From NCBI RefSeq assembly GCF_000740895.1, contig NC_025260.1:972001-1036000 (forward strand): DNA of 64,000 bases. The letters run 5' to 3'. Position numbers and translations under genes: made by a program. This document shows positions 41,338 through 54,299 of this stretch, piece by piece; within the stretch, counting starts at the first letter, position 1, and each line of letters opens with the position of its first letter. Below the pieces are notes generated by a model, which was not told the DNA's origin, did no database searches, and worked only from the letters and a program-made list of their open reading frames with translations. The DNA comes from Theileria orientalis strain Shintoku. Taxonomy: Eukaryota; Apicomplexa; Aconoidasida; Piroplasmida; Theileriidae.

Positions 41338-44303
41338 ATGATACTTATATCGCATATTCTAAATAGGCGAATACACTTAGAAAATTTAAATCCAAGTATC
41401 AACACAATTAAAACATATTCAAGTAAGATAGCGCCATTTGGTATAAAATTGTTTAACAGTAGAAGAATAGATGTACTTGTAGAAAATAAAGTTAAGCGCC
41501 TCAGTTATGCAATTTATAGTAGACAGTGCTTTAATTTAAACAAAAAATATTTTTTATCGGGAAGTAGTAAACTTGATACGTTAAATGTAAAGTCAGCAGA
41601 TGGAATAAGAGATGTGTTTAATGGTAAAGTGAAAGGTAAAATGTCTCCAGCTTGTGTTATGCAGAGTATCAACCCAAGGCTGCCAAACGAGTTTATTGAC
41701 GAAAATAAAATTGAGAGTCAAAATACATCTTTGAGTACAAACAATAAAGGACGAACCACAAACATAGGATTCAACGCAGATAATTTCGGAATTAGCACAA
41801 AAGATCTGGGAATTAACAATCATGGAATGAGCAGTTTAATGATGAAAAGTAATCATGGAATCGACACGAATCATGGAGAGAACGTGAATCAGCAGGCGCG
41901 AGTTACACACGCGCTGAAGCAGGAAGCAGACCACTGGTCAGTGAAGCAGCCAGTTGAAGAGTCAGCAGGGATGACGAAGGAGCCGGGCCACGCCCAAGAG
42001 TCGCAGCTGACGAGGTACTGGTACTACCCGCAAACGAGGACGCCGAGTGACGACGGCAGTATGGATTTCAAGAGCTTCCAAGTGATGACGTTCAACACGC
42101 TCGCGCAGAGCCTCGTGGACCACAAGTACATGGAAAACGACCAGACGACGATGAGCTGGACGAAGAGAAGGCACGAGATATACAAGGTGATCCAGGAGAG
42201 CAGCTGCGACATAGTGTGTCTGCAGGAAATCGACGAGCTCGACTACATCAACTTCTTCAAGGAGAAGGTCGAGGAGCTGGGCTACGAGTCAGTGTACAAG
42301 AGGAAGCTGCAAAACAGGCTCGACGGAGTGCTGACGCTGTACAGAAGGGACAGGTACGAGCTGGTGCTGAAGAGGGAGCTTAACTTCTCGTCGGAGCAGG
42401 AGGAGTACGACAAGCCGCAGGTGGCGCTGATCGTGGTGCTGAAGGACCTGTACACCACAGAGAACAAGGCGCCAAGAGCGACTAACGATGGCATTGCAGG
42501 TGCCGGGGCCGTGAATGGGGGCGTGGACGACATCCTGATAGTGGCAAACACGCACCTTATTTTCAACAAGAGCAGAGGAGACATAAAGCTGTATCAGCTG
42601 TGCAGTCTGTTGGCAGGGCTTAAGCAGACGTACGACGAAGTAATGTATAACGGCTCGAACAGTGGCACTAGTGGTGCTGAAGCAGGGGCAGGTGCGGCTA
42701 TGGGCACTGGCTCCGGAACCGGGGGTAGCATGTTGTTGCCAAACGTGCTCTTGTGCGGAGACCTGAACATAACGCCTCAGAGTCTCATGTACAACTTCCT
42801 CTTCCACGGATTCGCGCCCCTGAAGCACACGAACCCGAGGTGCATATCAGGCCAGTACCTGATGTTCGATAAGACGTACCTGACCTCGTCGAGTGGACAC
42901 AACGAGTCGGGAGAGACGATGGGCTCAGTGAGGCACTACGTGTCGGACGTCTACGGGCCGGACGAAGGCCCGGAAATGGCGCAGGGATACGGAAGTGGAG
43001 CTAGCGGCAGCACGTACGGCTACGAAAAGGGCTTAGACAAGTCATTCAGCGGAGTTCCGCCGGGACAGGGCAACTGGTACGAAGGAGTCCTGAGCCAGTT
43101 GAACAGAGCGTACTTCTCAAAGAGGCCGGACCACGTAAACGTTAACCACGTGGCAGAGTTCCTGGAGTTGATCAACAACACAGTGGCCACGGAAAAGGAG
43201 TACTCGGGTCTGACGGATGAGTTGGCGAAGAAGCTGCACGCAGTGTCTACGAGCGGCAGCGTTGAACTTGGCACCACTGACACTGACAGTAACAACCGCA
43301 ACACTACCCTGAACACTGGTAGCATTAACACTGTTAGTGGTGACACTACCCTGAACACTGGTAACACTGACAGTGGTAGTAGTAACAGCAACACTGGTAG
43401 CATTAACACTGTTAGTAGTAACACTACCCTGAACACTGGTAGCATTAACACTGTTAGTGGTGACACTACCCTGAACACTGGTAACACTGACAGTGGTAGT
43501 AGTAACAGCAACACTGGTAGCATTAACACTGTTAGTAGTAACACTACCCTGAACACTGGTAACACTGACAGTGGTAGTAGTAACAGCACAAGTGCCAATA
43601 AAGTAGATGAAGTAAACGAAGGTGACGACGGCAGCTTCACAGGAGTAATTGGGCCATCAGATAGCGACGGTGCCGCAAACATTTCCACAGATCTAGGCGA
43701 CGCTGTGGTTGGTGGAACAAACGCTAATTCTGATAATACAGCAGTGACGAGAAGTAGTACAGGCAACACAAGCAGTTTCGACGGAGGCGACGAGGTTATT
43801 TACTGCCCACTTAAGCTGTCGAGCGCATACTCAGTGGATGACGGATTCAACTGCGAACCGGCATTCACAGCATTCCACGGCTGGCAAAAGGGCTGTGTGG
43901 ACTACATTTGCTATAACCCGGACTACACTCTCCTCGAGGGCATATACGAAATGCCATTATACACACAAGTAAGGCAAAACGGGGACCTGCCACACAAGGT
44001 AAGCGTGTACAGCCGACAATTACGGCCACGTATAAACATTATAGCAAAGTACTACTGTTGTATTTATGTAGTAGTAGTAGTAATAGTAGTAGGCTAGCTA
44101 TGTGGTAGTATCCTAACTATGTGGTAGTAGATGTAGTAGTAGGCTAGCTATGTAGTACTAGTCATCTATATTTAGTTTATGGAAATAGGTACCTACAAGT
44201 AGCTGTTATGTGACGTATGATACTTAGCACTGATAACAATTTTTAGAAATGGCCCGCGTCAGACCACTTTAGTCTCATTTCACAATTTAAACGTATCAAG
44301 TAA
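41338..44303 (+). CDS. CCR4/PDE12-type EEP-family exonuclease
   Basis: Two exons, 41338-43998 and 44247-44303 (phase 0, CACAAG|GTAAGC to ttttag|AAATGG); 2718 nt, 905 aa. The endonuclease/exonuclease/phosphatase fold starts near residue 246 (FQVMTFNTLAQSL) and shows the family's active-site elements in order: VCLQEIDEL (metal-binding Glu), ANTHLIFN, LCGDLNITP, CVDYICYN and, in the small last exon, WPASDHFSLI. Members remove poly(A) tails (CCR4, nocturnin, angel) or 2'-5' and mitochondrial poly(A) (PDE12). The first about 65 residues are basic and nearly acid-free (ILISHILNRRIHLENLN; TIKTYSSKIAPFG), so an organellar presequence and a PDE12-like role are possible. A Thr/Asn/Ser-rich insert, including a 120-bp exact repeat, interrupts the catalytic domain between GDLN and DYIC. 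Confidence 0.87.
43321..43560 (+). repeat. Exact 120-bp tandem duplication in the CCR4-type gene
   Basis: 43321-43440 and 43441-43560 are identical by direct comparison of the lines, and partial copies of the sub-unit AACACTGGTAGCATTAACAC flank them. It encodes N-T-G-S-I-N-T-V-S repeats and keeps the frame (120 is divisible by 3). Confidence 0.95.
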
Positions 44304-45037: not shown

Positions 45038-48000
45038 TTATTCACATGACTGGTCCTTGACACTTTCTAAGTATTCCTCCACTATGCCCTCGGAATCCGA
45101 GCCCAACTCCTCAGAATCGTACTCCGAGCTACTGACATCTGATTCTAAAAGGGGCGTTTGTTAAATAGGAACAGTGTCTGCGTATTAAATACTCGTGTAT
45201 CTGCGTTGATAAGGCTACTCCAGCTCATATTTATCTCATGATTCTTACCGTAGGTGTATTCGCTGTCGTCTCCGTCGAACTTCTCCACGAAGTCGTCCAA
45301 TGTGTATCTGACCTCCTTGACTAAACAATAGTTACTACTGGTTGCAATGCATCTATGGCGATTACAGCAGATATTCTACTAAAATCTACTTGTAAACTTA
45401 CAGTTTTGAACTGAGTTGTTGGGGATGTATATCACTGGGTTTTCTATGACCTTCTTGAGCTCGTTTACCTCAGTCAGCATCACTTTCCATGCTGGTTTGT
45501 ACCTATTAATTTTTGTTTAAATCCGTCTTCAATCTCGTCCACTTACCATATGAATGAATACAGCCACTCCAGGGCAATATACACACCCATCGACTACAGT
45601 TAAATTAACACCAAGTTTAACAATCAAGTTTGTAGCCCGTTTCTTAACATATACTCTAAGCCGCTACTTCTAATATATATCAGGTGCACATTTGTCTATC
45701 TATGTTCTTACTATTCTTAGTGACCTCAGTATGTACTGTTGTCCTTCTGGCGATATGTACTTCTTTACGTCAATGTCCAGCCATTGCGTGAACACCTTGT
45801 TCAGTATCGTTTCGAGCAGACACGAGGTCACAATTGCTAAATGTTTCTATCCAGTTGCTTCAACGTACCAAGTATCACTTTAAATCTTGAGTTGGACGTG
45901 AATTCAAACGACGTCGCCACTATGCCCAGTATAACAAACAGAAAGTATGTGAAAAACGTTTTAAAGTTATTGATAAAGTCTACACATTTGTCGTTGATTT
46001 AAGCATATAGTTTCAACTTATTACTACTTAAGACTATTCAAGTTATCTGCTAACTAAACACAACTATCAACTAAATTTCACTAAATTTTCGTTGATGCTA
46101 CTAGTACAAATAGTAATAGTAGCAGTATTAATAGTATTGTTGGTAGATATAGTACAAGTGGTAATACTAGTAATAATAATACTAGTAATAATAATACTAG
46201 TAATAATAATACTAGTAGTAATAATAGTAATACCTAGAATCCTCCTCTGGTATTCCTTTACTGTTGTTATTACTGTTAAAACCGTGCCCAAATCTGACTT
46301 GATTGAGTCAATCCATATGGTCAAACTAAAGTATCATTAGCATCAACGCCATATGCTAGTAGTAGCTACTATTTATTTGTGGTAGTCAATATCACTAATT
46401 TTATAGTATTTAATACTTCTCAGCCTTGTTCAGTTGTTCAGTTTGTTGCTCATTTAAAAGTTGAAATTGATCTCTCACTGACTTGTAGACTTTAACCATG
46501 TTATTGGCAGAGTCAGTCAATTTGTTAATCTACAAATTATTGATAAATGGACCATTGCCAGTACCATTTGTGATACAACATGTTTATTTGTATATGAGTG
46601 TGTAGGCGTGTCGACTTACGTTTATTTCCGTTCTTTTGTTCCATTCTCCCGATTGAAGATAAAAGCATATGTTGTCTGAAATAACGTCAACGAGTGTTAT
46701 TAACAACTAGTAAATGTCATTTTTGAGAAAATCATAAATTGGCCGTTTTTAATTGGTGATAGCAGTAATTCAGGCATGGCTAAGTCGTGAAAAAAAGGTT
46801 TAGAGCCAATGATTGAAAGATAAAACCAAATGGCTCCATCCGACGCTCTCAAAACAGTTCTGTGTGAATAGTTGTGAATTTAGTTTTGAACAACTGGCGG
46901 TGTGTCTGCGTAATGTTTAAAGATCAAGTAGCCTGCGTACGCTCCAAGAATGGCTCCTACACCCACTCCGCCGACTGACGCTCCCATCACCACCCAATTG
47001 ACTCCATCTCCTCCGGAACACAGCAGATTGAACAAAAATGATTGCCCTTGGGCTTTGGTGAACGAGATTTTAAGTGCGTGGCTTATATCTTCCAGTGCGC
47101 CCTCAATGTCGTCGTCGTCCTTGATCTTCTTCAATAGCTCCTGGTCAACTTCGCCGCGTTTTATTTTCCTCCACTTTTTAATGGTCGGGTCCCCGCTGAC
47201 AAGTCTGTAGTACTCGCTGGGCCCATCCTTGAAGTGGAAAACCAGCATCAGCGGAAAGATCAGCTCGCAATCGTGCAGATTGTAGTACGCATCCACTGAT
47301 ACGAGCTGTTTCGTTATATCATACTCCACGTTTGCGTTGGCGCTGCTGCAATACTTCACAAACCCCAACCTATAGCCATCGGCTCTGCCGTCCATGTCGC
47401 AAAATCTGTGTATGTATTTCCTGTAAGAGCTGTTGTTAGAAAGAGTCACCCTGATGGTAGGGGCGTTGGAAATCGGCTGTGCAACATGCGAGAAGCGTTT
47501 TCTGGCTTGGGAGTTTGCCATCTCACTTGCCAGTGCGGCTCCACCTGCCGGCCTGAAGCTCAGGTCCACTATCGTCAAGGATCCAATGATCTCAGAAAGG
47601 ACTGACACTAGCTTTTCACTGGAATCGGCGCTGATTGGACATTCGAACATCTCCGGCATTTTGACCCAATATTCAGCGTATTCAAGTGACGACAACGGCC
47701 GATATCCAGTGCCGTTACAGCAGAAGAATAGTGGCCTAGGGTCTCTGCCGTAGAAGAAGACGTACAAATTGAAGTCTTTTCTTAAGTACGCCAGGGGCCC
47801 TAGCTCACTACTCTTCTGCTGTAACGGCTCTTGGTCCAGGCCGCTATACTCGCCTAGCAACTTTATCTCACTGTACTGGCAACTTTCTGATGGCACCAAC
47901 AGTCTCAGAACACCGCCTTCACCTTGCCCCTCGGGCCTAAGTGTACTGCGGTAACACGCATACCCTGCCCTTTCTAAATCTGGACAATTTTCCCTTTTGA

Positions 48001-50507
48001 CGTACACGTTCTCGGGTTGCGACGTGAGGCACTCTGGGTTTGGGCAAATTTCTGAGCCAGAACTCTTAATGGCGTCGGCCACATCATCTTTACCGTATCT
48101 ACTCTGCCTATCTATCGGCAATACCACCGTGTTTTTATGAACCACTACGAGGGTTCTTAGCAGGAGTAGTAGCTTTCTATGCGAATCTGAAACCAGGGTA
48201 CTGTGAATCTGGTTAGTCTCAATTTCTTCATTTAGTAGCATCTTTGCCATCACTTTGTCCAGTTTCGCCCAGCCTTGTGTCTTTTCGTTTTTCCTTTGGG
48301 TGTAGTAGAAGGTGCCCTCTGAGGAGTTAAACTCCAGCAAGATTGCTTCTGCGAACTCAGAATAATAGTAGGAACAGATGTGCGAGTATTTTTTTCCTTG
48401 CACTTCTCCTATTGGGTTTTTGCCACTGGACAAGGGCGTTTCCCTGTCGACCATCACACAGCTATTGGTTTGCCCGTGTGCGTTCACTGGCTCGTGCTTA
48501 TACTTCCTGAATCCACTCATTTCAAGCGCCGGCAGGCTACTTGTTTCATTTGTCACGCAGATCTTATTCCCATTATACTCTCCGATTGTTATGTCCATTT
48601 GGTATGTCAGTGCGGAAGACAGTTTACTATTTTCATTCATTATTGTTCTGAACAAATGTACTTGATTCCCATTGAAATGGCATATTTCACTCATACGTTT
48701 ACTTTCGTTCCAGCGTATGAGTGAAGTAAGCTGTGAATATTTAAAGAACTTGGGAGCCGGGCGTTTTGTGACTTCGGATTTAAAGTTCAATAATATTACC
48801 AGCGGCGTATTATCCTCGTCGTACGCGTTGGCGTATACTTGCACGTGCGAAAGCTGGGCTCCAATATACCTTCCATCCTGCATCAATTTCAGCTTGTTTC
48901 CGCCCCTTTTTTCGTATATCTCAATATCTTCTCCCGGGGGCCTGTCTTCTATCTCATGAATACACTCTCTAATTATTCTGCATTGTCCATATAACCGATG
49001 CACACATACAACTCCTTCATAACTGGAAATTTCAGTAAGTATTATTTTAATCATTTTTGAACAAAGAGTAAATATTTCTCTTTATCACTTGTTGGATCTA
49101 AAATCCTCGGTGTGTTTCAGAAATCTTTTTATTTTTTTGCTTTTTCTCCAAACAATCGACTCTGTTCTTATCTCTATATCGAAAATATCTACTTGATTTT
49201 TTTTTCAACTCTTTCTTAATTCTATTCTTTTATCATATTATTCTACAACATCTGACCAAATTCTAGATCTAATCGACTTTTGATCTTCCAATGTTTGCAA
49301 CAACTTCTAAATTTCTTATTCGATGGACCATATCAGCCCTTTTCCATTCAAAATATTCCAAGACACTTCTACATATTAAGATTTCCTCTAAAATCATGCT
49401 ACTTCATCATGCTCGTATACCATGCTGCTCCATAAGAACTCTTTAGGCGTTACACCTTTTGTAAAATAGCCCTAGCCTAGTCTATGCCGGTGTTATTCAC
49501 CATCTGGCCTCTTAATCAGCAAAAACTCCAACAGTATCCTTACAAGCATCCCTTCTTACTGCTATCACCGGCCTTCTAGCTATCTGCCTACCTAGTAACT
49601 CACGTGACACCTATCTACAAAATTACCTATGTGATTTAAGTCCGAGTGGTACATCTGAAATGCCGATTCTGACATTACGCTGGTACAGTGCGATACTATT
49701 TTTCGTTTTATCTTTTCGCAGTCGGCGCCCTTGTAGCTGACCAAACACGGGTTATAGTCCCAATCGGCGCCGGCCTCAACGTCGTCGCCAGCATCATCAC
49801 TCGTGCCACTGACTGTCAATCCGTTGATCTCTTCATGGGTCAGAACACTCGGATTCAGGACACATCCTTCCTTCCTCGTTGGAAATTTCCTGTTTGCTCT
49901 TAAGAAGTGGCACTTCGTCTTTGCCAGCGCTATCAGCGACCTTGAGGCGTCGCCGTTGAAGTCGCAGCTTTCAACGTCCAGCGAGTTAATTTCATTGATG
50001 ACAAACTTCCAACAGCCGGCTTCGTTGATGATTTTTGAGTAGTTTAACTCAGTGTGAATGTCCGTATCCAGGTTAATGTCGAATTCATCTCCTGTAGAAG
50101 TATGACCGTTGGTCACATGGTTAATGTAAATAACTAATAATATTAATTAATAACGCCGATGCAATAATATCTAATCATATCCAATAGCAGCTACTCCCAT
50201 ATAATAGTTGATAATATACTTAATCCGTACCATTTTTCGTTAGTTGTGTAAGACATGGATACGGGTCCTTGCTGTTTTTTAAATATTCCAAATCCACTGG
50301 AATGTCGCTAGAAATGTGCTTATCTATTGACACCAGTGAGATGCAGTCCTCTTCCTTCTCTTTAATTTTATCCAGCAGGGATTTATAGGTATCTTTACCA
50401 CTTTTGAAGGTAGCTTTTGCTATTGAGTTCCAGTTTCTGAAAAGCGAACAATAAACGTTACATTTATAAAATGTAATCACAAGTGCTATGAAATATATGT
50501 TGTTCAT
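45038..50507 (-). CDS. GEX1: Gamete nuclear fusion protein KAR5/GEX1/Brambleberry family
   Basis: Twelve minus-strand exons: 50507-50231, 50091-49627, 46675-46620, 46529-46417, 46325-46234, 45981-45958, 45919-45869, 45836-45712, 45593-45547, 45502-45402, 45320-45249, 45144-45038; 1530 nt, 509 aa. A signal peptide (MNNIYFIALVITFYK) leads to a Cys-rich domain in the KAR5 order: GCWKFVINEI..ESC, a Cys-His helix (LAKTKCHFLR), FPTRKEGC, NPCLVSY..DC..CTSVMSESAFQMYHSD. Across the long intron it continues as [21 protein letters not shown], the family's most typical stretch, then a coiled coil and membrane segments ending in an acidic tail. These proteins sit in the nuclear envelope/ER and drive karyogamy of gametes, in Theileria in the tick gut. 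Intron 2 (49626-46676, phase 1) contains another whole gene. The 45958/45919 junction is doubtful: see findings. Confidence 0.78.
45920..45957 (-). other. Doubtful 38-nt intron (or frameshifted membrane segment) of GEX1
   Basis: The stretch begins GTTTTT and ends CATAG. Removing it restores the frame exactly (NNFKK then LATSFEF). Left in, the downstream frame reads FFTYFLFVILGIV, a convincing membrane segment, but then the six-A run just upstream puts the preceding codons out of frame. All other donors of this gene start GTA; this one does not. Confidence 0.4.
45982..46233 (-). repeat. GEX1 intron with ACTAGTAATAATAAT microsatellite
   Basis: 252-nt intron; at about 46165-46225 (plus strand) the 15-bp unit ACTAGTAATAATAAT is repeated four times. 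Open frames on both strands here are products of the repeat. Confidence 0.8.
46676..46879 (-). other. 3' flank of nested gene inside GEX1 intron 2
   Basis: 204 nt between the nested gene's stop and the GEX1 exon 3 acceptor (ttatttcag). A partial open frame here has an ATG at 46777 and could splice at 46708, but it is better explained as intron. Confidence 0.5.
46880..49054 (-). CDS. Lineage-specific modular membrane protein nested in a GEX1 intron
   Basis: Uninterrupted 724-codon frame, ATG 49054 to stop 46880, lying wholly within GEX1 intron 2 on the same strand. Residues about 20-115, 240-275, 440-480 and 590-640 share a pattern of hydrophobic strand ending in Phe, a turn, an aromatic pair and a Trp (PLVILLNFKSE..SLIRW; AILLEFNSSEG.YY..GW; NLYVFFYGRDP..YW; PLMLVFHFKDG..YY..KKW). 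This suggests a repeated piroplasm-specific domain, not FAINT. Residues about 690-715 are a Gly-rich hydrophobic stretch (GASVGGVGVGAILGAYAG) then LIFKHYADTPPV, so a C-terminal membrane anchor is likely. No clear N-terminal signal peptide is seen from this ATG; an upstream exon is possible but none was found. Function unknown; a surface or endomembrane protein of a multigene family is my inference. Confidence 0.85.
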   Translation of the reverse strand: MIKIILTEISSYEGVVCVHRLYGQCRIIRECIHEIEDRPPGEDIEIYEKRGGNKLKLMQDGRYIGAQLSHVQVYANAYDEDNTPLVILLNFKSEVTKRPAPKFFKYSQLTSLIRWNESKRMSEICHFNGNQVHLFRTIMNENSKLSSALTYQMDITIGEYNGNKICVTNETSSLPALEMSGFRKYKHEPVNAHGQTNSCVMVDRETPLSSGKNPIGEVQGKKYSHICSYYYSEFAEAILLEFNSSEGTFYYTQRKNEKTQGWAKLDKVMAKMLLNEEIETNQIHSTLVSDSHRKLLLLLRTLVVVHKNTVVLPIDRQSRYGKDDVADAIKSSGSEICPNPECLTSQPENVYVKRENCPDLERAGYACYRSTLRPEGQGEGGVLRLLVPSESCQYSEIKLLGEYSGLDQEPLQQKSSELGPLAYLRKDFNLYVFFYGRDPRPLFFCCNGTGYRPLSSLEYAEYWVKMPEMFECPISADSSEKLVSVLSEIIGSLTIVDLSFRPAGGAALASEMANSQARKRFSHVAQPISNAPTIRVTLSNNSSYRKYIHRFCDMDGRADGYRLGFVKYCSSANANVEYDITKQLVSVDAYYNLHDCELIFPLMLVFHFKDGPSEYYRLVSGDPTIKKWRKIKRGEVDQELLKKIKDDDDIEGALEDISHALKISFTKAQGQSFLFNLLCSGGDGVNWVVMGASVGGVGVGAILGAYAGYLIFKHYADTPPVVQN
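49055..49626 (-). other. 5' flank of nested gene inside GEX1 intron 2
   Basis: 572 nt between the GEX1 exon 2 donor (ATAG|GTAATT) and the nested gene's ATG. On the minus strand it is purine-rich with poly-A runs. It should hold the nested gene's promoter. No further exon found. Confidence 0.5.
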
Positions 50508-51545: not shown

Positions 51546-54299
51546 ATGGATCTGAGCACTAAGGAAAAGCTTCAGACTGCCAACGCTCTCAAGCGTGCCT
51601 CTTCGAACTTGGCAGTTTTTGACTCGAATGGAAATGTTTTAAATGTATGTAAACTACTTATGCCACTGATAAGCTAATGATTAGTTTATGGGACTCTAAT
51701 AGTTATAAATATGTTTGTAAAAATGATTGATAGTGTTTATTAATGCTTTTTATTAGGGTACATATGTTTGGACCGATATGGCTCCTGCGGTCAAGGAGAA
51801 CCCGGATATCATGTTCGCCAAATGTCTAGTTCATCACGGCTCTACTAAGGATGTCTTAGTTTGTACTCAAGTTGAACCTCCATATGACAAGGATAAGGTA
51901 TGTGAACACTTGTGTGCTTCTATCTGTTGCTTATCCCCCAGTTATTCTAAAGTTACTGCCTGTTATACCATCTAGTTACCTCCACATTTATGCCTGTTAT
52001 ATCCCCTCGTTGCCTTACAAGCTAATTATTTGCGTAGAAGTTTGAAGTTCCCGCCTCCAACGCCTGGAACACCAATAGTCAGATTGACCCGATGACCTAC
52101 GGCGACATTGGCATGCTTCCACAGACCTCGATTCCCTGCGTGCTCGACTTTTTGAAGCACAGATTCCACAAGAACCAGATATACTCGACTGCGGACCCCT
52201 TGGTCGTTTCCATAAACCCCTTCAAGGACCTCGGAAACGCAGGCCAGAACGTGATTGACAAGTACAGGGGCGCCAAGAATTTGATGGACATGCCTCCTCA
52301 CGTGTACTACACGAGCAGGCGCGCCCTTGAGAACCTCCACGACTTCAAGTACTCCCAGACCGTTATTGTTTCTGGGGAGTCCGGTACCGGAAAGACTCAG
52401 TCCGCGAACATGATGATGCGCTACTTCGCCAGTGGCGGCACCCAGAGCGGCCACATACAGCAGGTGGTCATGGCCTTCAACCCCGTGCTCGAGTCGTTTG
52501 GTAACGCCAAGACCATAAGGAACAACAACAGCAGCCGTTTCGGACGCTTCATGCAGCTCGACGTGGCCCCTGAGGGCGGCATTCGTTACGGCTCCATCGT
52601 GACGTTCCTGCTCGAGAAGTCCAGGATTGTCACTCAGGACGACGACGAGAGGAGCTACCACATCTTCTACCAGCTGCTCAGGGGCGCCAGCGAGGAGATG
52701 AGGAGCAAGTTCAAGCTTCTGGGCGTGAGTGACTACAACTACCTCAACAAGAAGTGCACCGAGATTAACGGGGTCAGCGACGCCAAGGAGTTCGAGCAGA
52801 TAATGGAGAGCTTTGAGAAGATGAACCTCTCCCAGGACCAGAAGGACACCGTGCTGAGCGTGCTCTCCGGAGTCCTGTTGTTGGGAAACGTGGTCATTGA
52901 GGGCGAGGAGCGCGACGGTCTCGTTGACGCCGCCGTTGTGACGAACACCAACGTGCTCCGCGACGCTTCGGATCTTCTGTTCCTCGACTACGACCAGCTG
53001 GTCTACAACCTGACCACCAAGAGCACCAACGCAGGCGGCTCAGTCATTGTAAGCCCCAGGAGGAGGGACGACTCGAACGTGCTCAAGATGAGTCTGAGCA
53101 AGGCCGTGTACAACAAGCTGTTCCTCTGGCTCGTGAACACCGTCAACAAGACCATCGAGCCCCCGCAGCCCTTCAAGCGTTTCATCGGGCTCCTCGACAT
53201 CTTCGGCTTCGAGGTCTTCAAGAACAACTCGCTCGAGCAGCTCTTCATCAACATCACCAACGAGATGCTTCAGACCAACTTCATCAACATTGTCTTCAAG
53301 AGGGAGTCCCAGCTTTACCGCGAGGAGGGCATTTCCGCCCCTGAGCTCCAGTACAGCTCCAACGCCGACGTCATAGATTTACTCTGCAACAAGGGCAAGT
53401 CGATCCTCTCCGTGCTCGAGGACCAGTGCCTTGCCCCCGGCGGTAACGACCTGAACGTTACCAGCACCTGCAACTCTCAGCTCGGCTCTAACCCCAAGTA
53501 CCTCAAGGCTAAGCAGGACGGCTACTTTATGGTTGTCCACACTATTGGGCCCATCCAGTACTCTGCCAGCGGCTTCGTCAACAAGAACAAGGACCTTCTG
53601 ACTGGGGAGCTCGTGACTCTCGTCAACGCCAGTGCCAACCCTCTGGTGAAGCAGCTCTTCGAGGGTGAGGTCATCAGCACCGGCAAGCTTGCCAAGGGCA
53701 TGCTCATTGGGTCCCAGTTCATGAGCCAGCTCGAGTCTCTCATGGCTCTCATCAACAGCACCGACTCTCACTTCATCAGGTGCATTTCTCCCAACGACCG
53801 CATGCTTCCCATGACCTGGAACTCCGTGCGTGTTCTTCTTCAGCTTCACGCTCTTTCTGTCATTGAGGCTCTTCAGCTCAGGAAGCTCGGCTTCTCCTAC
53901 AGGCGTCCCTTCAAGGACTTTGTTGAGCAGTACTATTACATAAGTCCCAAAATCGGCGGGGACAAGACCATGTCAGACCTCGATAAGGCGCTCGCTCTCG
54001 TCAAGGAGGGTGGTTTGTCAGAGGGCAGCTACGCTGTCGGCAAGACCCGGATGTTCCTCACTCGCAAGGCTGCCAACGAACTCACCTCTGTGGTTAGGGA
54101 GAGACTCGCCAGGTGGGCTCCTCTTGCTGACGTCCTTGAGGCACTCATGGTCCGCTGGAACAACCAGAAGGAGCTAAAGAAGAGCGTTAAGTCCGTCGTC
54201 AGGCTTCAGGCCCACCTCAGAAGACTCATTGTCGACTCCGGGGTCACTCCGAAGCCCAACCAAAAGGAGCTTGACGTTGCCAAACTAGTAAAAATATGA
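51546..54299 (+). CDS. MyoA: Myosin A (class XIV unconventional myosin)
   Basis: Three exons, 51546-51644, 51757-51897 and 52038-54299, all phase 0; 2502 nt, 833 aa, the normal size for this tail-less class. Motor signatures: P-loop GESGTGKTQ near residue 192, switch I NNNSSRFGRFM, switch II DIFGFEVF near 466, and the actin-binding FIRCISPND. The C-terminus is a short neck with two degenerate light-chain sites (VRWNNQKELKKSVKSVV, RLQAHLRRLI) and no tail. In relatives MyoA is the glideosome motor under the plasma membrane, bound to MTIP/MLC and GAP45. Theileria zoites glide poorly, so its use here may be in invasion or tick stages. It is the last core gene before the secreted-protein cluster. 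Confidence 0.95.

What the first reader, a model, noticed from the sequence alone, without database searches (positions are those of the whole stretch)
46676..49626. A complete gene nested in an intron of the gamete-fusion gene GEX1/KAR5
The Cys-rich N-terminal half of GEX1 (50507-49627) and its coiled-coil/membrane half (46675-45038) are 2.95 kb apart. The donor (ATAG|GTAATT) and acceptor (ttatttcag|AC) are intact and both phase 1. Joining them recreates the family's signature HIDNICFYLQSGEW exactly at the seam. In between, on the same strand, sits a full 724-codon lineage-specific membrane-type gene. Same-strand nesting means the GEX1 transcript must cross the inner gene's start, stop and poly(A) signal. 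This could couple a sexual-stage gene to a variable-family gene, or break GEX1.
Basis: partly seen in the sequence, partly recalled or inferred. Interest (0 to 1): 0.88.

Follow-up and report, generated by a model that had tools for sequence, protein, structure and literature searches.

The report
Gene nested inside a GEX1-like intron
In the cattle parasite Theileria orientalis, a small intron of what looks like the only copy of a conserved nuclear-fusion gene has probably grown about 90-fold around a complete, fast-changing gene of a parasite-specific family, while the host gene's coding parts stayed intact.

Summary
The window is chromosome 1 of T. orientalis Shintoku. An 11-exon GEX1/KAR5-like gene (minus strand 50507-45038, 521 codons by arithmetic, phases consistent) has a 2,951-nt intron (49626-46676) that holds a complete same-strand 724-codon gene (49054-46880). 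Whole-genome search with the T. parva ortholog finds this locus only, colinear on both sides. T. equi's predicted protein has 11 extra residues exactly at the seam, readable as an unspliced 33-nt phase-1 intron: the position is probably old, the length new. The 3' half shows no relaxation: 66% identical to T. parva (5' half 60%), 93% to Fish Creek (Chitose). The inner gene is 50% identical to its Fish Creek counterpart and belongs to a multigene family without Pfam name. The public Shintoku models split the host in two. A perfect 14-nt inverted repeat, whose only two exact genomic copies flank the inner gene, might fold the intron shut or be an insertion scar. 'Breaks GEX1' is unlikely; coupling is untested; the GEX1 name rests on architecture and recalled motifs. 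Splicing across the intron needs RNA evidence not available here.

The parts
50231..50507 (-). GEX1-like exon 1 (signal-like start by eye, first conserved Cys)
49627..50091 (-). GEX1-like exon 2 (rest of the Cys-rich domain), ends phase 1 with donor GTAATT
46676..49626 (-). 2,951-nt intron 2 holding the inner gene
   Evidence: T. parva protein continuous across the seam; 33-nt equivalent inferred in T. equi P0012
46880..49054 (-). inner gene, 724 codons, one open frame, hydrophobic C-terminal stretch (residues 685-712)
49556..49569 (-). 5' arm of a perfect 14-nt inverted repeat, 57 nt inside the donor
46755..46768 (-). 3' arm of the inverted repeat, 79 nt before the acceptor
46620..46675 (-). 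GEX1-like exon 3, NICFYLQSGEW after the split Asp codon
46417..46529 (-). exon 4
46234..46325 (-). exon 5
45869..45979 (-). exon 6, first hydrophobic segment
45712..45836 (-). exon 7, second hydrophobic segment
45547..45593 (-). exon 8, third hydrophobic segment (below the cut here, above it in T. parva)
45402..45502 (-). exon 9
45249..45320 (-). exon 10
45038..45144 (-). exon 11 with stop
46708..46777 (-). alternative first exon used by the public model of the 3' half (P0014), joined by a 32-nt GT-AG mini-intron 46707-46676; judged probably an annotation artefact

Best explanation
An intact, apparently single-copy GEX1/KAR5-like gene with an old small intron (about 33 nt in T. equi, inferred) whose T. 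orientalis version grew to 2,951 nt when a gene of a T. orientalis multigene family came to lie in it on the same strand. The inner gene is its own transcription unit (572 nt of AT-rich DNA between donor and its ATG, 204 nt between its stop and the acceptor); the host pre-mRNA runs through it and the whole block is removed as one intron. Shown by sequence: exon anatomy, phases, orthology on both sides, lack of decay, a real inner gene. Inferred: that the intron is spliced in sexual stages, that the inner gene has its own promoter and 3' end, that the nesting is shared by Fish Creek. Possible aid to splicing: a 14-nt stem that would leave about 136 nt of intron outside it.
For: Splice sites and phases. 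Orthologs continuous across the seam and a likely retained 33-nt intron in T. equi P0012. Locus unique in the genome by search with P0005. No sign of relaxation: T. orientalis/T. parva identity 181/273 = 66% in the 3' half, 140/235 = 60% in the 5' half; at sites where three outgroup rows agree, changes only in T. orientalis 6 against 12 only in T. parva (3' half), 5 against 2 (5' half). 3' half 227/245 = 93% identical to Fish Creek MACJ_003414, with genome-wide nucleotide identity Ikeda to Chitose/Buffeli 81.7-82.0% (PMC9323827 section 2.5). Inner gene has a full-length ortholog. Flank G+C 35% is nearer the Shintoku intron mean of 34.1% than the intergenic mean of 29.9% (PMC9323827 Table 3), a weak point.
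Against: No RNA evidence. The public Shintoku models treat the two halves as separate genes (P0003, P0014). An intron 30 times the Shintoku mean of 96.5 nt may splice poorly, though annotated introns reach 5,418 nt there. The 5' half of Fish Creek was not found (could not see proteins under about 266 aa), and no Goon Nure inner ortholog was seen, so shared nesting is unproven. The relative-rate counts are small.
Confidence: 0.8

Rival explanations
1. Gene fission: the halves are expressed separately, as the public models have it; the Cys-rich half and the membrane half are two polypeptides that re-associate, with the inner gene between them.
For: Public models P0003 and P0014; an in-frame ATG at 46777 with a 32-nt GT-AG mini-intron exists before exon 3.
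Against: P0003 needs two further introns and ends in a tail that does not match its orthologs; P0014 leaves out exon 6, which is conserved in T. parva; the Fish Creek 3' model starts at a Met inside exon 4, not at the alternative exon; donor, acceptor and phase across the large intron are kept although fission would free them.
Confidence: 0.12
2. The nested gene killed the host gene; GEX1 is a pseudogene in this species.
For: Only the unusual intron length.
Against: No stop or frameshift in any of 11 exons, 93% identity to Fish Creek in the 3' half, no relaxation by relative counts.
Confidence: 0.03
3. Functional coupling (not exclusive with the best explanation): transcription through the inner gene, or early termination at it, sets host and inner gene against each other by stage; reading into the intron would give a truncated Cys-rich product with 11 residues after the seam.
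For: Same strand; in-frame stop soon after the donor (ORF 50116-49592).
Against: No expression data; the passage seen describes nested genes in animals as probably neutral, without functional links (PMC3488318).
Confidence: 0.15
4. Assembly artefact in Shintoku.
For: None found.
Against: Fish Creek, assembled from long reads (PMC9323827), has the inner ortholog and the 3' half on a contig of exactly its chromosome 1 length, 2,765,963, and there too the 3' half is a separate model.
Confidence: 0.02

Closest known systems
Intron-nested protein genes of animals (PMC3488318, passages seen; it cites Kumar 2009 and Assis 2008, not read)
   Same: A whole gene inside an intron of an unrelated host gene.
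   Different: Here in a compact piroplasmid genome with mean intron 96.5 nt, same strand, inner gene from a fast-changing multigene family, host intron probably a 33-nt mini-intron before.
GEX1/KAR5/Brambleberry nuclear-fusion proteins (PMC7586128, PMC10609895, passages seen)
   Same: Cys-rich N-terminal domain, then a region without such Cys, then two to three hydrophobic segments.
   Different: No Pfam match, also none to Tht1 (PF04163); no direct comparison with a named GEX1 sequence was possible; coiled coil not computed.
Yeast introns with zipper stems such as RPS17B (PMC2536676, abstract and outline seen)
   Same: Complementary stretches after the 5' splice site and towards the 3' end that could shorten the effective distance.
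   Different: Here only predicted from one genome, without covariation or test; the intron is long and carries a gene.

Membership tests
Intron-nested gene | Host exons on both sides belong to one gene | tested here: met
   T. parva P0005 covers both sides colinearly, seam exact
Intron-nested gene | Inner unit is a complete gene | tested here: met
   724-codon ORF with a full-length ortholog P0002
Intron-nested gene | Host intron is spliced out in RNA | not testable with these tools
   no RNA data held
GEX1/KAR5 | Cys-rich N-terminal domain (six conserved Cys in land plants, PMC7586128 passage) | tested here: met
   9 Cys columns invariant in 10 of 10 rows of A1 and one more in 9 of 10; one-to-one match to the plant Cys not tested
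GEX1/KAR5 | N-terminal signal sequence | tested here: inconclusive
   N-terminal hydrophobic stretch passes the hydropathy cut in P0009 and P0010, not in T. orientalis, P0005 or P0011; no signal-peptide program run
GEX1/KAR5 | Two (KAR5) or three (GEX1) C-terminal membrane segments | tested here: inconclusive
   at a cut of 1.6 two pass in T. orientalis and two in T. parva, not the same two; three in union
GEX1/KAR5 | Coiled coil between them | not tested
   no coiled-coil program run
GEX1/KAR5 | Pfam Tht1 (PF04163) match | tested here: inconclusive
   no match listed for 10 of 10 members of A1 at E up to 10 nor in the genome; but the model also rang in 0 of 14 control genomes
GEX1/KAR5 | Sequence similarity to a named GEX1 | not testable with these tools
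   no hit bears that name; Ning 2013 is not held; resemblance of SRSLIALAKTKCH and ICFYLQ..W..RTE to plant GEX1 is recalled
FAINT/DUF529 (inner gene) | Pfam PF04385 match | tested here: not met
   no FAINT match in P0001, P0002 or 9 relatives, while neighbours of some relatives do match

The most novel reading that the evidence does not exclude
A piroplasmid mini-intron became the lasting home of a fast-diverging family gene, and a 14-nt RNA zipper stem, with no other exact copy in the genome, evolved or was made at insertion that folds the inner gene out and shrinks the effective intron from 2,951 to about 136 nt plus stem, so that a gene needed for karyogamy survives. Use of the stem, or transcription of the inner gene, might then act as a stage switch between full-length and truncated host product.
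Probability: 0.2. Interest if true: 0.72.

Novelty: new member of a known kind. Interest (0 to 1): 0.5.

Why it matters
It corrects the annotation of a conserved, apparently single-copy candidate nuclear-fusion gene that public files show as two truncated hypothetical genes. It also gives a natural case in a compact genome: the same intron is likely 33 nt in one relative and 2,951 nt with a gene inside in another, so the cost of same-strand nesting and the possible role of a closing stem become directly testable with RNA reads and DNA of sister genotypes.

Tried and rejected
Traces of the insertion: in 46400-49800 (8 direct-repeat families, 10 inverted pairs) no clean target-site duplication stood out. 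Two imperfect direct pairs straddle the inner gene (D2, 23 nt, 78%; D3, 22 nt, 73%); I take them for chance, untested. Only the 14-nt inverted repeat was perfect. Donor-to-acceptor contour distance in whole-intron folds does not discriminate: 25 steps natural, 10-29 in 6 of 6 folds with shuffled flanks, so folding alone brings the ends near; only the helix itself (pairing probability 0.81-1.0) is specific. Duplex energy of the two flanks is only mildly low (10 of 300 shuffles as low or lower).

Other nested family members: around 11 chromosome-internal family places one search lists 34 flanking ORFs of at least 110 aa; I scanned 20 of 34, covering both sides at 8 of 11 places. 13 of the 20 have a Pfam match at E 0.01. 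No ordinary gene was seen on both sides of a member; one place (L045) has FAINT genes on both sides. Low power, but no pattern of nesting.

Related DNA in genome contigs and viral contigs: none confirmed (two peptide patterns each).

Papers: searches for GEX1+KAR5+Theileria, Theileria+gamete+GEX1 and Theileria+gene family+FAINT+orientalis+subtelomeric gave 0; nested gene+intron+Theileria gave 3, nested genes+apicomplexa+intron+same strand 1, nested gene+Plasmodium falciparum+intron 9. By title and start of abstract none describes this locus; of these I opened only passages of PMC3488318. T. orientalis papers: PMC9323827 (outline; Results part 1 of 2; sections 2.5 and 4.8; data statement; figures and tables; passages), PMC9610513 and PMC5921998 (passages only).

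Full report
Identity of the window. The genome behind the window has 9,010,364 bases in 6 contigs, the total length printed for T. orientalis Shintoku (Ikeda) in PMC9323827 Table 3; the contig length 2,746,313 is that of its chromosome 1 in Table 2. A protein of this locus is named as Shintoku on a contig of that length.

Host gene. On the minus strand eleven exons, 50507 to 45038, give 1,566 coding bases with stop (sum of the lengths); every intron is GT-AG and every phase fits. Introns are 139, 2951, 90, 91, 254, 32, 118, 44, 81 and 104 nt. The large one is 49626-46676. T. parva P0005 (529 aa) aligns exon by exon on both sides, and a whole-genome search with it gives 9 matches, all here and in order (8 of 8 candidates scored). 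So it is one gene and, as far as this search sees, the only copy.

Seam. In 8 of the 10 aligned homologs the protein reads LNH(I/M)-D-(N/D)ICFYLQ without a break; T. orientalis has LNHI + G|AC + NICFYLQSGEW, the Asp codon being split by the intron. The T. equi protein P0012 has eleven extra residues, GPFLVHKEKFT, exactly there. With Gly first (GGT: G, then GT) and Thr-Asp last (ACA, G), this reads as an unspliced 33-nt GT...AG intron of phase 1. It would make the intron position older than the inner gene's presence.

Is the host alive? I compared the halves apart. T. orientalis-T. parva identity is 60% in the 5' half (140/235) and 66% in the 3' half (181/273). At sites where three outgroup rows agree (B. 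caballi P0009 and the unnamed P0010, P0011), changes found only in T. orientalis number 5 (5' half) and 6 (3' half), only in T. parva 2 and 12. The numbers are small, but nothing suggests that the part behind the inner gene has been set free. The Fish Creek 3' half MACJ_003414 is 93% identical (227/245) against a genome nucleotide identity of 81.7-82.0% between Ikeda and Chitose/Buffeli (PMC9323827 section 2.5).

Public models. Two named Shintoku proteins cover the host: P0003 (340 aa: 5' half, with a bit of intron 1 and a tail drawn from the large intron) and P0014 (254 aa: 3' half, with an alternative first exon 46777-46708, a 32-nt mini-intron, and without exon 6). The inner ORF is in the protein set as P0001 (two member sequences; its source is not shown). 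MACJ_003414 (3' half, beginning inside exon 4) and MACJ_000373 (inner gene) lie on a contig of 2,765,963 bases, which is Fish Creek chromosome 1 (Table 2). That the Fish Creek 3' half is also cut near this place hints that the nesting is shared; locus tags do not prove adjacency. For Goon Nure nothing can be said from these calls.

Inner gene. 724 codons, 47% G+C (Shintoku exon mean 46%), between flanks of 35%. Own-genome search gives 59 matching stretches including itself (62 of 74 candidates scored; stretches, not genes), the next best 30% identical; 23 of 59 lie within 42 kb of a contig end. In Pfam, P0001, P0002 and 9 relatives have no match above a curated cut-off; the strongest below it is SPOB_a in L018 (E 4.9e-5, 23.3 bits, cut-off 28.1). 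FAINT is not met. Outside this genome only P0002 was found (7285 candidates of similar length), 50% identical over 710 aligned residues, so it changes much faster than the 3' half of its host. Its hydropathy passes the cut near the C-terminus (685-712) and at 482-500. PMC9323827 describes T. orientalis groups of hypothetical proteins with one C-terminal membrane segment that cluster within but not between genotypes; whether this gene is among them is not known.

The inverted repeat. A perfect 14-nt inverted repeat lies 57 nt inside the donor and 79 nt before the acceptor, on either side of the inner gene. The 14-mer was found exactly twice in the genome, both here; 12 further sites have one mismatch (backward control pattern: 6 sites). 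Shuffled flanks reached 14 or more in 1 of 400 trials, that one 19; real pieces of the window in the same geometry in 0 of 400. The repeat was picked out after looking at a list of 10 inverted pairs, so these figures overstate it. In a whole-intron fold all 14 pairs form (probability 0.81-1.0), but donor and acceptor come about as near in 6 of 6 controls with shuffled flanks. It may be a zipper stem of the kind described for yeast introns (PMC2536676, abstract and outline), or a scar of the insertion, or chance.

Name of the host. The architecture fits GEX1/KAR5 as described in passages of PMC7586128 and PMC10609895, with nine invariant Cys. Pfam gives nothing useful. I accept the name as likely (about 0.85), partly on recalled motifs.

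Verdict. The drama is less: nested genes are a known kind, the host looks intact, and coupling is speculation. What lifts it is the contrast between a likely 33-nt intron in T. equi and a gene-bearing 2,951-nt one here, and a possible closing stem.

Noticed in passing
T. equi protein P0012, residues at the seam: The public T. equi model seems to keep a 33-nt intron as coding sequence (GPFLVHKEKFT).
   Followed up: partly
window 46162-46233: TAA-type tandem repeat (15-nt unit, 4.3 copies) at the start of the 254-nt intron between exons 5 and 6.
   Followed up: no
window 41338-44097: Endonuclease/exonuclease/phosphatase-family gene (Pfam PF03372) with a long Ser/Asn/Thr/Gly-rich repeat stretch.
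   Followed up: no
window 52092-54299: Myosin motor gene (Pfam PF00063) on the + strand, beyond the 5' end of the GEX1-like gene.
   Followed up: no
L037, L041, L045: Some chromosome-internal relatives of the inner gene sit next to FAINT-domain (PF04385) genes.
   Followed up: partly
G000 C4:589457-594268 (L014, L011) and C3:1721446-1726941 (L016, L004): Relatives of the inner gene stand in long or tandem same-strand open frames; the stretch C4:591134-592171 has one stop inside.
   Followed up: no
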